From Pseudomonadota bacterium (GTDB taxonomy: Bacteria; Pseudomonadota; Gammaproteobacteria; Burkholderiales; Burkholderiaceae_F), in assembly GCA_029778535.1 (NCBI GenBank), contig JAKOQB010000041.1:184538-248537 (forward strand): 64,000 nt of DNA, read 5' to 3'. The notes under the pieces were generated by a model. The model saw nothing but the letters and a program-made list of their open reading frames with translations, was not told where the DNA came from and ran no database searches. Below, in pieces: positions 2,913 through 8,386 of the stretch (positions are counted from its first letter, which is position 1; each line of letters begins with the position of its first letter). A program made the position numbers and the translations under genes.

Positions 2913-3656
2913 ATGACCGAGGACATCATCACCTTCGACAAGGTGAACAAGTGGTACGGCAACAACTTCCACGTGCTGCGCGACATCAACCTGCGGGTCA
3001 AGCGCGGCGAGCGCATCGTGGTCTGCGGTCCGTCGGGGTCGGGCAAGTCGACGCTGATCCGCTGCATCAACCGGCTCGAGGAGCACCAGGAAGGCCGCAT
3101 CGTCGTCGACGGCACGGAACTGACCGACGACGTGCGCGCGGTCGAGAAGGTGCGCAAGGAAGTCGGCATGGTGTTCCAGCAGTTCAACCTGTTCCCGCAT
3201 CTGACGGTGCTTGAGAACCTGACGCTGGCGCCGATGTGGGTCGGCAAGCTGCCGAAGAAGGAGGCAGAGGAACGCGCGATGGCGCAACTCGCGCGCGTGC
3301 GCATCGCCGAGCAGGCGCACAAGTACCCGCTGCAGCTCTCGGGCGGGCAGCAGCAGCGCGTGGCGATCGCGCGCGCGCTGTGCCTGACGCCCAAGATCAT
3401 GCTGTTCGACGAGCCGACCTCGGCGCTCGACCCCGAGATGATCAAGGAAGTGCTCGACGTGATGATCGAGCTGGCCCGCGGCGGCATCACGATGATCTGC
3501 GTGACGCACGAGATGGGCTTCGCCAAGGCGGTCGCCGACCGCGTGATCTTCATGGACCAGGGGCAGATCGTCGAGGAGAACAACCCGCGCGAGTTCTTCA
3601 ACAACCCGAAGAGCGACCGCACCAAGGACTTCCTGTCGAAGATCCTCGGGCACTGA
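2913..3656 (+). CDS. aapP: Amino-acid ABC transporter ATP-binding protein
   Basis: A 247-residue ATPase of the GlnQ/HisP/AapP family. Walker A is GPSGSGKST (39-47), the Q-loop FQQFNLFPH follows near 88, the signature LSGGQQQR is at 142-149, Walker B with the catalytic Glu is IMLFDEP (162-168), and the switch His lies in VTHEMG. All catalytic residues are present. It closes the operon, 17 bases after aapM, and drives uptake through the two permeases. The last ~86 codons have a decayed second copy at 8115-8386, on the far side of the hao genes. The only ATG with a conserved N-terminus (MTEDIITFDKVNKWYG) was chosen; its ribosome site is weak. Confidence 0.94.
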   Translation: MTEDIITFDKVNKWYGNNFHVLRDINLRVKRGERIVVCGPSGSGKSTLIRCINRLEEHQEGRIVVDGTELTDDVRAVEKVRKEVGMVFQQFNLFPHLTVLENLTLAPMWVGKLPKKEAEERAMAQLARVRIAEQAHKYPLQLSGGQQQRVAIARALCLTPKIMLFDEPTSALDPEMIKEVLDVMIELARGGITMICVTHEMGFAKAVADRVIFMDQGQIVEENNPREFFNNPKSDRTKDFLSKILGH

Positions 3657-3668
3657 GGCAGGGCGCGT

Positions 3669-5207
3669 TCAGTGACCGTCCGGGTGCACGTGCGCCGGCA
3701 GGTCGCGCGCGCAGGCGCCGCTGCCGCGGCCCGCGCCGCACACCTCGGCGAGCCGCGCGACCGCCGCGCCGATCGCCTCCGGCGCGAGGGACGAGAACCC
3801 CAGCGTCACCGTGCGTTTGTGCGCCGCGGACGTTTGCAGTTCGGCCGAACCGCCGCTACGTGTGCTGTAGACGCCGACGCCGGCCGCCACCGCCCGACGC
3901 CGCAACTGCTCGGCTGTCGGCCAGTCGGCCGGCAGGCGCCACGCCAGATGCAGGCCTGCTTCGGCGCCGGCCAGGTCGACCGGTCCGAGGTGGCGCCGAA
4001 GCTCCGCGACCAGACGCAGACGCCGCTCGTTGTAGCGGCGGCGCAGTCGGCGCAAGTGGCTCTCGAAACGTCCGCTCGCCAGCAGGCGCGCAAGGACGGC
4101 CTGGCTCAGCAACTCGTGCCCGCCGGTCATCAAGCCGAGCGCGGTGCGCGCCCGCTGAGCGAGCCAGGGCGGCACGACCAGATAACCGATGCGCAGCCCC
4201 GGGCCAAGCGACTTGGAGAACGTGCCGAGATAGAGCACGCGGCCGTAGGGATCGAGTCCGGCGAGCGCAGTGAGCGGCGGCCCGTCGTAACGGAAGTCGC
4301 TGTCGTAGTCGTCCTCGACGATCAAGGAACTGGAGCGCTGCGCCCATTCGAGCAGCGCGAGACGGCGCTCCAGGGGCAGTGTGGCGCCGGTCGGATACTG
4401 GTGCGACGGCGTGACGTAAAGCAGCGCGAAACCTTCCGGCGGCAGGCGGTCGACGCAGACCCCACCGTCGTCGACCGGGATGCCGACGACCGAGCAACGC
4501 AGCGAGCGGAACAGGTACAGCGCGCCCTGGTAACAAGGGTCTTCGATACCGGTCGAGCGCGTCGCATCGCACGTGAGTCGGCACGCCAGGTGCAACCCTT
4601 CCTGCGAACCGGCGACGATCATCACCTGGGTGGGGCTGACCCGCAGGCCGCGCGTGGCGGCGAGCTGCTGCGCGATCGCTTCGCGCAGCGGAAGAAATCC
4701 CGCCGGGTCCCCGTAGCGCGTCAGCGCCGCGCGCATCTCGGGATCGGCCAGGGTGTCCGCGGTGAGCTCCTGCCAGGTGCGGGCCGGAAATGCCTGCGCG
4801 TCGGGCCGGCCGAGCGCAAAGTCCCAGCGCAACGCCTCGTCTTCGAAGATGTCCTGCAGTTCGGCATCGAAGGCGGTGGTCGCGTCGGGCGAGGCGGCGG
4901 GCGCCGCCGGCGGAGTGCGGACGTCGCGCGCGGTGTGCACCGCCCGAAACGTCGTGTCCGGCACCTGCACTGCCACCCGCGTGGCGGCGCCGTGCCGCGC
5001 TTCGATGTAACCTTCGGCCGCCAGGCGATCGTAGGCGAGCCGTGCGGTGTTGCGTGACACCTGCAGCGTTTCGGCCAGCTCGCGCGTGGAGGGCAGTCGA
5101 TGACCGGCCGCCAGTTGACCCGTCAGGATCAACGTGCGAATCCCCTCGAAGATCTGCGCGTGCAGCGGTACCGGGCGACCGCGATCGAGCACGAGCAACA
5201 GACCCAT
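3669..5207 (-). CDS. MocR/PdxR-family regulator (GntR winged helix fused to aminotransferase fold)
   Basis: 512 residues. The N-terminal GntR helix-turn-helix spans about 12-75 (PLHAQIFEGIRTLI, LPSTRELAETLQVSRNTAR). A class-I aminotransferase-like domain follows from about 125 to 500, with the PLP lysine at K332 in GTFSKSLGPGLR. MocR proteins use PLP or amino-acid adducts as effectors and usually control PLP-, GABA-, taurine- or amino-acid-related genes. It is convergent with the amino-acid transporter (12-bp gap) and co-directional with, and downstream of, haoAB (42-bp gap). It could be the last gene of a haoA-haoB-mocR unit or regulate the transporter; the sequence does not say which. Confidence 0.88.
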   Translation of the reverse strand: MGLLLVLDRGRPVPLHAQIFEGIRTLILTGQLAAGHRLPSTRELAETLQVSRNTARLAYDRLAAEGYIEARHGAATRVAVQVPDTTFRAVHTARDVRTPPAAPAASPDATTAFDAELQDIFEDEALRWDFALGRPDAQAFPARTWQELTADTLADPEMRAALTRYGDPAGFLPLREAIAQQLAATRGLRVSPTQVMIVAGSQEGLHLACRLTCDATRSTGIEDPCYQGALYLFRSLRCSVVGIPVDDGGVCVDRLPPEGFALLYVTPSHQYPTGATLPLERRLALLEWAQRSSSLIVEDDYDSDFRYDGPPLTALAGLDPYGRVLYLGTFSKSLGPGLRIGYLVVPPWLAQRARTALGLMTGGHELLSQAVLARLLASGRFESHLRRLRRRYNERRLRLVAELRRHLGPVDLAGAEAGLHLAWRLPADWPTAEQLRRRAVAAGVGVYSTRSGGSAELQTSAAHKRTVTLGFSSLAPEAIGAAVARLAEVCGAGRGSGACARDLPAHVHPDGH

Positions 5208-7890: not shown

Positions 7891-8114
7891 GACACGCTCC
7901 CCCGAAATGTTCGTGTGCCGCACAGCTTCCGGCCGTGGCGCCCTGGCGTGCAAGACCCTGCGCGCGCGGCGGCGACAGGCCCACTTCGTTGCGTTGCGGT
8001 AGCCCTGCGGCGCATCGGCTTCCCTCGTGCAGCCTTCGGTCGCCGGCTTGTCACCTTCGCCAGCGGCCTGCGCTCAGGCGGCGGCAGGCAGGACGCCGAC
8101 GACCGTGCTGCGCC

Positions 8115-8386
8115 TGCCGTCCGGGATCATGCGGTTCGACGAGCCGGCCTCGGCGCCCTGCCCTCCGTCGATCGAGGAGGCGCTCGACGTGATGGTCGAG
8201 CTCGCGGGTCAGGGCATCACGATGCCGGAGGTCACGCACGAGATGGGATTGGCCAAGGCCGTGGCCGACCGCGTGATCTTCATGGACCAGGGGCAGATCG
8301 TCGAGGAAGCCGATCCGCAGGAGTTCTTCGGCAACCCGAAGAGGGACCGCACCAGGGACTTCCTGTCGAAGTTCCTCGGGCACTGA
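8115..8386 (+). pseudogene. Decayed second copy of the 3' end of the amino-acid ABC transporter ATPase gene
   Basis: Translated in frame, this stretch matches the last ~86 residues of the ATPase at 2913-3656, about three quarters identical by eye, down to the common end FLSK-LGH. VTHEMG, KAVADRVIFMDQGQIVEE and DRT-DFLSK are shared. Walker A, the Q-loop and the LSGGQ signature are absent, and the D-loop SALDPEM has become SAPCPPS, so it cannot be a working ATPase. It lies upstream of haoA in the same orientation as the intact gene, so the haoAB-mocR block sits between direct repeats of this gene end. Alternatively it is the relic of a deleted paralogous transporter operon. Confidence 0.85.

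What the first reader, a model, noticed from the sequence alone, without database searches (positions are those of the whole stretch)
2913..8386. haoAB-mocR block lies between direct repeats of an ABC-transporter gene end
The intact ATPase gene ends at 3656; a decayed copy of its last ~86 codons is at 8115-8386 in the same orientation. Everything between is on the opposite strand: mocR, haoB, haoA. This is what remains if a segment entered at the 3' end of the transporter gene while duplicating that end, or if a paralogous transporter was deleted around it. It suggests lateral acquisition of a hydroxylamine-oxidation cassette.
Basis: partly seen in the sequence, partly recalled or inferred. 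Interest (0 to 1): 0.72.

Follow-up and report, generated by a model that had tools for sequence, protein, structure and literature searches.

The report
Hydroxylamine operon with MocR switch
Behind a transporter gene this bacterium carries a 16-kilobase extra block with genes for oxidising hydroxylamine, likely acquired from distantly related bacteria and predicted to be switched by their own vitamin-B6-type regulator, a kind that also sits beside such genes in other bacteria where no ammonia- or methane-oxidising enzyme of the usual family was found; the repeated transporter-gene end next to them is a decayed relic.

Summary
The repeat is real: 284 nt, 82% identical (3374-3657 and 8104-8387), and the second copy is a dead relic. 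It does not mark the ends of the insertion. In 8 of the 11 other same-family genomes with this ATPase gene, the genes now at 19887/20689 follow it after about 14 bp to 8.1 kb; here the gap is 16.2 kb. So haoAB-mocR, the relic and further genes lie in one extra block at a variable site. None of the 8 has a second transporter copy there. HaoA groups with gammaproteobacterial methanotroph-type enzymes, not with HaoAs of its own order (AU p 3e-66, 5.5e-5), which supports lateral acquisition. The stronger lead is the regulator: MocR of this type sits with hao genes in 13 genomes, none with a PF02461 (AMO/pMMO) match. At E<=1e-90 it is absent from all 20 PF02461-positive genomes of a 49-genome set. 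It is also absent from nine genomes of the ammonia-oxidiser family f16. In 399 genomes of the order it occurs in the 3 other hao genomes and in 2 without hao. I propose that MocR switches haoAB, probably by sensing hydroxylamine through pyridoxal phosphate. The sensing chemistry is untested.

The parts
44..460 (+). ORF that keeps its place before the permease genes in relatives, probably the end of a substrate-binding-protein gene (resemblance recalled); no Pfam match
   Evidence: 52-88% identity before perm1 in relatives; no Pfam family
612..2895 (+). two permease genes of an amino-acid ABC transporter (612-1790, 1792-2895)
   Evidence: NCBIfam amino-acid permease families; order conserved in relatives
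2913..3656 (+). intact ATPase gene of the transporter; left anchor of the empty site
   Evidence: ABC_tran; 88-91% aa identity to the genes of the 8 relatives used
3374..3657 (+). left copy of the direct repeat (3' end of the ATPase gene)
3657..19886 (.). 16.2-kb extra block absent from the orthologous site of 8 relatives
3669..5207 (-). mocR: GntR DNA-binding domain plus aminotransferase-like PLP domain
   Evidence: PF00392, PF00155; NF052282 425 bits against cut-off 320; GabR alignment
5250..6290 (-). haoB (database copy is 18 residues shorter, start about 6236)
   Evidence: TIGR04392 182 bits, cut-off 200; PF27869 on the database copy
6271..7953 (-). haoA, octaheme hydroxylamine oxidoreductase (database copy is 21 residues shorter, start about 7890)
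   Evidence: PF13447; 8 CXXCH; Tyr497 aligned with position 467 of solved HAO
8104..8387 (+). decayed copy of the ATPase 3' end
8509..9216 (+). BTAD-regulator relic; Pfam matches only the latter part of the BTAD domain
   Evidence: PF03704 71-136/146
9316..9677 (+). csgG-like relic, repeat of 11598-11935
11166..11933 (+). CsgG-like gene
   Evidence: PF03783
13699..14832 (+). OmpA-family gene in the block
   Evidence: PF00691
16609..18504 (+). gene with 32% identity to a gene directly behind the ATPase in G017; itself no Pfam or NCBIfam match
19887..20621 (+). BPSS1780-family membrane protein gene; right anchor of the empty site
   Evidence: NF041043; matches in G023 and G009
20689..22752 (+). 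fused MFS/spermidine-synthase-like gene, second right anchor
   Evidence: NF037959; 70-77% matches in 7 relatives

Best explanation
A 16.2-kb block that eight relatives lack at this site carries a hydroxylamine-oxidation operon, haoA-haoB-mocR, which was likely acquired laterally from a gammaproteobacterial methanotroph-type lineage and is predicted to be switched by its own MocR. Shown: the block and its absence at this site in 8 relatives; the ATPase relic inside it; the HaoA grouping; the recurrent hao-MocR linkage; no PF02461 match in this genome. Inferred: the site behind the ATPase gene is a hot spot where DNA was inserted and partly lost more than once. One such event left a second ATPase gene end, which then decayed without coding constraint. 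Inferred: HaoA oxidises hydroxylamine with HaoB's help. MocR would bind the hao promoter and change its binding when hydroxylamine attacks its pyridoxal phosphate and forms an oxime, so that the operon is made only when hydroxylamine is present. That would suit a cell that has no ammonia or methane monooxygenase of its own and meets hydroxylamine from outside or as a by-product.
For: Empty site: in G023, G026, G013, G011, G029, G009, G038 and G017 the ATPase is followed within about 14 bp to 8.1 kb by matches to the genes now at 19887/20689, without hao or a second ATPase copy between. HaoA: AU test rejects grouping with f16 (ammonia-oxidiser) HaoAs plus L032/L178 (p 3.4e-66) and with L168/L089/L090 (p 5.5e-5). 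HaoA in 12 of 399 genomes of the order: own, nine of family f16, G098, G411. Relic: at columns invariant in 7 close functional genes it differs at 13, 11 and 1 of 86, 86 and 51 (codon positions 1, 2, 3); all 7 functional controls differ most at position 3, e.g. G021 5, 3, 9. MocR: next to hao genes in L060, L066, L077, L081, L089, L090, L092, G098, G411 twice, next to haoB in G490 and G494, and on one contig with haoB in G487. MocR at E<=1e-90 in 0 of 20 PF02461-positive and 10 of 29 PF02461-negative genomes (Fisher 0.003). In 399 genomes of the order at E<=1e-90: the 3 hao genomes outside f16, none of the nine f16 ones, and 2 of 387 without hao; 0 of 9 f16 genomes even at E<=1e-40. Seven exact contig-length matches between the listed MocR and HaoB hits against 0.16 expected. 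PLP lysine motif aligned with GabR.
Against: The donor is unknown: HaoA sits on a long branch. The Nitrosococcus oceani table lists a GntR regulator (Noc0891) directly before HaoA (PMC3772326, passage). N. oceani is an ammonia oxidiser, so if Noc0891 is a MocR the link with AMO-free life is not strict. One PF02461-positive genome (G453) has a weaker MocR match, 3e-76. One hao-linked MocR (G411 C34) has Arg in place of the PLP lysine. The missing carboxylate-binding arginine of GabR (role recalled) does not separate linked from unlinked MocRs (absent in 13 of 14 against 6 of 9, counted by eye). Purple-sulfur genomes with hao and no PF02461 match (L064, L080, L095) lack this MocR. The window's MocR passes the NCBIfam PdxR cut-off, so a vitamin-B6 role is possible. 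Draft assemblies miss genes, so PF02461 absences are soft. The relic's time and mode of origin are not resolved (AU rejects none of seven trees).
Confidence: 0.6

Rival explanations
1. The hao segment alone (3658-8103) entered by a single crossover of a circle that carried an ATPase gene end, which duplicated that end; the right-hand part of the block was there before or came later.
For: Copies in direct orientation, left copy full length, right copy truncated on its left and ending at the stop codon: the layout such a crossover gives. One state found only in the intact gene and G009 is shared by the relic.
Against: The relic is not recognisably derived from the present gene: neither of the intact gene's two private states is shared, and at 16 sites where the intact gene differs from G009 the relic goes 8 with intact, 6 with G009 and 2 with neither. 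Two further relics follow it (8509-9216, 9316-9677), so it is one of a row of remnants. The AU test does not exclude a sister relation (p 0.31).
Confidence: 0.3
2. A second, paralogous transporter operon stood here and was deleted down to its last 93 codons; hao is unrelated to the relic's origin.
For: G028 has two copies of the operon on two contigs, 97% identical in the compared stretch, so duplication happens in this family.
Against: None of 8 relatives has a second copy between ATPase and the right anchor genes. The relic's private changes fall on codon positions 1 and 2, hardly on 3, so there is no sign of a long life as a working paralogue.
Confidence: 0.15
3. MocR is an unrelated neighbour, a PdxR-type regulator of vitamin B6 genes carried along by chance.
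For: Passes the NCBIfam PdxR equivalog cut-off; G084 and G085 carry similar MocRs without hao beside them.
Against: Recurrent linkage to haoA or haoB, in several arrangements, in 13 genomes; at E<=1e-90 absent from 20 of 20 PF02461-positive hao genomes.
Confidence: 0.15
4. The block is an assembly or binning artefact.
For: Genome contamination estimate 7.59% in 240 contigs.
Against: One 248-kb contig carries family-typical genes on both sides of the block (ATPase end 94% nt to G009; spermidine-synthase-like anchor 70-77% aa). An 82% relic inside the block is not what a misjoin makes.
Confidence: 0.05

Closest known systems
haoAB of gammaproteobacterial methanotrophs (e.g. Methylococcus, Methylomicrobium)
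   Same: HaoA about 61-71% identical over the matched part, haoB directly behind, no cycAB in the window
   Different: no PF02461 match in this genome and a MocR gene in the operon
hao-cycAB module of ammonia-oxidising bacteria (family f16)
   Same: octaheme HaoA with the cross-link tyrosine; haoB
   Different: 53-55% identity; the AU test separates them; 0 of 9 such genomes carry this MocR
DnfR, MocR-family regulator of the dirammox cluster in Alcaligenes
   Same: a MocR protein that governs genes of hydroxylamine oxidation (one sentence in PMC12575085; the original 2022 paper is not held)
   Different: DnfA is not a haem HAO (recalled); DnfR's sequence was not compared here; its ligand was still to be identified according to a passage in PMC11440038
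GabR / PdxR (MocR family)
   Same: GntR head plus aminotransferase-like domain, PLP lysine motif
   Different: linked to haoAB; no GABA or vitamin B6 gene in the window's operon
Genomic islands inserted at the 3' end of a gene with a copy of that end
   Same: extra DNA directly behind a gene and a second copy of its end
   Different: no integrase recognised among the block ORFs scanned; the repeat copies do not bound the 16.2-kb block; 284-nt diverged relic instead of a short exact core (core recalled)

Membership tests
Octaheme hydroxylamine oxidoreductase (HaoA) | eight CXXCH haem-binding motifs | tested here: met
   8 motifs; PF13447 494 bits
Octaheme hydroxylamine oxidoreductase (HaoA) | tyrosine that cross-links to the P460 haem (Tyr467; role recalled) | tested here: met
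   window Tyr497 aligns with the Tyr at position 467 of chain 4fas_A
Octaheme hydroxylamine oxidoreductase (HaoA) | oxidises hydroxylamine in vitro | not testable with these tools
   needs enzyme assay
HaoB | NCBIfam TIGR04392 at curated cut-off | tested here: not met
   182.1 bits against 200, but nearly full length, 6-320/320; PF27869 assigned to the database copy
MocR family | GntR winged helix plus class-I aminotransferase domain | tested here: met
   PF00392 and PF00155
MocR family | PLP-binding lysine | tested here: met
   Lys332 in GTFSKSL aligned with the same motif of GabR and 7pq9
PdxR (NF052282) | curated bit-score cut-off | tested here: met
   425.4 against 320
PdxR (NF052282) | controls pyridoxine biosynthesis genes | not testable with these tools
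   direct neighbours in the operon are haoAB
Integrative genomic island with 3'-end duplication | integrase or relaxase gene in the element | tested here: not met
   none among the block ORFs scanned with Pfam; short or unlisted ORFs were not scanned
Integrative genomic island with 3'-end duplication | direct repeats at both ends of the inserted block | tested here: not met
   second repeat copy lies 11.5 kb before the right end
Lateral gene transfer of haoA | gene tree conflicts with kinship | tested here: met

The most novel reading that the evidence does not exclude
Bacteria that own a hydroxylamine oxidoreductase but no ammonia or methane monooxygenase place it under a dedicated MocR regulator that is a direct hydroxylamine sensor: hydroxylamine captures the regulator's pyridoxal phosphate as an oxime and so turns on haoAB. 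Different MocR lineages were recruited for this more than once, and the pair travels between classes of Proteobacteria as a portable hydroxylamine-scavenging unit.
Probability: 0.3. Interest if true: 0.75.

Novelty: new variant of a known kind. Interest (0 to 1): 0.52.

Why it matters
How bacteria without ammonia monooxygenase use and control hydroxylamine oxidoreductase is, to my knowledge, poorly known. A regulator that recurs beside hao in such genomes gives a marker for this life style in metagenomes, and a ready test of whether hydroxylamine is sensed through pyridoxal phosphate, a cofactor it is well known to attack (recalled). My searches of the held library listed no paper whose title or opening abstract is about a MocR-HAO link. 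The six papers that hold both 'hydroxylamine oxidoreductase' and 'MocR' all speak of DnfR of dirammox in the passages I saw; one table lists a GntR gene before haoA in Nitrosococcus oceani. Most subscription papers are not held.

Tried and rejected
Target-site-like duplication bounding the insert: rejected, because the block extends 11.5 kb past the second copy. Relic as sister of the present gene: not shown and not excluded. Relic as a long-lived paralogue: held unlikely on codon positions. Early in the work the even 18/15/17 spread alone was read as neutrality; one search then showed that differences crowd in the first 130 nt and in columns variable among functional genes, so I tested invariant columns apart. 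Arg430 of GabR as a mark of hao-linked MocRs: rejected, not discriminating. One common origin of hao-linked MocRs: rejected by AU (p 0.003), but some of the 32 background rows may themselves be hao-linked (P0017's longest contig has length 429431, as has G098's hao contig), so this is weak. PF02461 in the own genome alone rang nowhere, so it was repeated with ammonia-oxidiser controls, which rang.
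Full report
1. The repeat. One search finds 3374-3657 and 8104-8387 as a direct repeat of 284 nt, 82% identical, without gaps; both copies end at TGAG, one base past the stop codon. In the own genome (G000, 4.77 Mb, window = contig C150:184538-248537) the best DNA match of the fragment, itself apart, is the neighbouring ATPase gene over the whole length. At protein level the two are 72% identical; no other ATPase is more than 44% identical to the intact one.

2. The relic is dead and looks old. It differs from the intact gene at 18, 15 and 17 sites of codon positions 1, 2 and 3; orthologues differ from the intact gene mostly at position 3 (for example 2, 3 and 11 for G009; Fisher p 0.0002-0.03 over eight comparisons). 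Differences are denser in the first 130 nt (34) than in the rest (16), and denser in columns that vary among functional genes (36 of 136) than in the others (14 of 147), so simple evenness is not enough. At columns invariant in seven close functional genes the relic differs at 13, 11 and 1 of 86, 86 and 51; all seven functional controls differ most at position 3, for example G021 at 5, 3 and 9. Changes against three agreeing genes go 19 towards G+C and 6 towards A+T, as expected if freed first and second positions drift to the genome's high G+C. The relic is 83.7% identical to G023's gene, 82.3% to its neighbour and 81.6% to G009's, while the neighbour is 94.3% identical to G009's. Neither of the intact gene's two private states is in the relic; one state confined to the intact gene and G009 is. 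No placement is rejected by AU (seven trees). I infer that it split off around or before the separation of these genera.

3. The empty site. Twelve of 67 same-family genomes, own included, have the ATPase at E<=1e-100. In 8 of the 11 others, stretches fetched show what follows. Approximate distance from the ATPase stop to the start of the next anchor gene, extrapolated from the matches: G023 14 bp, G013 and G026 95 bp, G011 170 bp, G029 710 bp, G009 2.8 kb (with an MFS gene and a cysK-like gene between, named from recall on reading), G038 4.6 kb, G017 8.1 kb. The anchors are the counterparts of window genes 19887-20621 (BPSS1780 family; found in G023 and G009) and 20689-22752 (fused MFS/spermidine synthase; found in the other six and in G009). 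In G002, G021 and G028 neither anchor was in the fetched stretch. In the window the distance is 16.2 kb. None of the 8 has a second ATPase copy or hao between the anchors.

4. Contents of the block. haoA-haoB-mocR on the - strand; the ATPase relic; a BTAD-regulator relic with only part of its domain; a csgG-like relic that repeats 11598-11935; then a CsgG-like, an OmpA-family, a DUF3558, two DUF3617 and several unassigned genes. No integrase or transposase was recognised among the ORFs scanned. Three relics in a row fit repeated gain and loss better than one neat insertion. The gene at 16609-18504 is 32% identical to a gene that stands directly behind the ATPase in G017, whose last third has a weak match, far below cut-off, to a SARP regulator model.

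5. HaoA. Eight CXXCH, and Tyr497 aligned with position 467 of HAO chain 4fas_A (cross-link role recalled). In 101 genomes (own and relatives) only own, G075 and G098 have it; in 399 genomes of the order 12 do: own, nine of family f16 (taken as ammonia oxidisers: PF02461 found in the two tested, G075 and G128), G098 and G411. The first hits listed in the GTDB scan are gammaproteobacterial methanotrophs and a Methyloversatilis MAG, 69-73% in the best segment; the latter's HaoA groups with Methylocaldum. In a tree of 83 rows the window sits in a 54-row group made up mainly of methanotrophs and Chromatiaceae, with Methylacidiphilum (SH-aLRT 95), on a long branch. AU tests on 35 rows reject grouping with f16 HaoAs plus L032/L178 of G098/G411 (p 3.4e-66) and with L168, L089, L090 (p 5.5e-5). 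Lateral acquisition is well supported; the donor is not identified.

6. MocR goes with hao where AMO was not found. Of 65 GTDB loci with a HaoA relative, 7 have this MocR beside haoA or haoAB: haoA-haoB-mocR in L060, L066, L077, L081, and mocR-haoA in L089, L090, L092; an eighth, L046, has a distant MocR (28%) 7.6 kb away. Many of the 65 loci are cut by contig ends. G098 has haoA-haoB, two small genes with four CXXCH each (sizes of c554 and cM552, recalled), then mocR. G411 has the same kind of cluster (one of the two small genes was resolved there) and a second locus mocR-haoA. For 50 of the 65 loci, lying in 49 genomes, I searched the whole genome. PF02461 was found in 20 of 49 and MocR at E<=1e-90 in 10 of 49, all among the 29 without PF02461 (Fisher 0.003). 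At E<=1e-60 it is 14 of 49, and one of the four weaker ones, G453 (3e-76), has PF02461. In all ten strong cases MocR is linked to hao genes: seven are the loci above; G490 and G494 have haoB and mocR adjacent; G487 has both on one contig about 4.8 kb apart, on opposite strands. Adding G000, G098, G411, G075 and G128 gives 0 of 22 against 13 of 32 (p 0.0003). Rows are related, so these p values are optimistic. Some PF02461 absences are surely assembly gaps (a Methylococcus capsulatus draft, G479, shows none), which weakens rather than makes the contrast. In 399 genomes of the order, with the three best candidates of each scored, MocR at E<=1e-90 occurs in 5: own, G098, G411, and two without hao, G084 and G085 (I take the 399 to be the same draw as), whose MocRs stand beside other genes. 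Nine of nine f16 hao genomes lack it even at E<=1e-40. Among database proteins, 7 of the 119 other MocR hits listed (of 4121) share an exact contig length with one of the 35 other HaoB hits; 0.16 are expected from shifted lengths. Four of these are the window's own MocR type.

7. How it would work. MocR proteins hold pyridoxal phosphate on a lysine (recalled); the window's Lys332 aligns with GabR's motif, and 13 of 14 hao-linked MocRs keep a lysine there; G411's C34 copy has arginine. Hydroxylamine is a classic reagent for pyridoxal phosphate (recalled). A MocR, DnfR, is reported to govern the dirammox cluster that oxidises hydroxylamine in Alcaligenes (one sentence and reference titles, PMC12575085). 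A passage of PMC11440038 speaks of DnfR's ligand as still to be identified. I therefore propose hydroxylamine sensing by MocR; every regulatory step is inferred. Against strictness: PMC3772326's table lists a GntR regulator, Noc0891, before HaoA in Nitrosococcus oceani (passage). Its type is not known from my calls.

8. Verdict. The repeat is a real but old scar and not the mark of the insertion. The hao operon is laterally acquired, as far as gene trees and the empty site tell, and lies in a larger block at a variable site. The finding worth passing on is the hao-MocR unit.

Noticed in passing
9316-9677 and 11598-11935: Second diverged direct repeat: a csgG-like relic; the intact-looking copy lacks 24 nt that the relic keeps.
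   Followed up: partly
8509-9216: BTAD-type regulator relic that matches only profile positions 71-136 of 146.
   Followed up: partly
L190 (G098) 5090-10980, L191 (G411) 5204-11198: haoA-haoB-tetrahaem genes-mocR clusters in two genomes with no PF02461 match: hydroxylamine oxidation modules of ammonia-oxidiser type apparently without ammonia monooxygenase.
   Followed up: partly
L192 (G411 contig C35): The same genome has a second, different hao locus with its own MocR directly upstream.
   Followed up: partly
L135 (G017), L137 (G038), L133 (G009): The site behind the ATPase gene holds different extra DNA in different genomes of the family: a likely hot spot for insertion.
   Followed up: partly
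L142 and L143 (G028): Two copies of the transporter operon on two contigs of one genome, 97% identical in the compared ATPase stretch.
   Followed up: no
L037: HaoA of a Methyloversatilis MAG contig groups with Methylocaldum; possibly a misbinned contig.
   Followed up: no
L191 (G411 contig C34) MocR: hao-linked MocR with Arg at the PLP-lysine position, so it may not hold the cofactor covalently.
   Followed up: no
15308-16444 and 18844-19287: Two DUF3617 proteins within the block.
   Followed up: no
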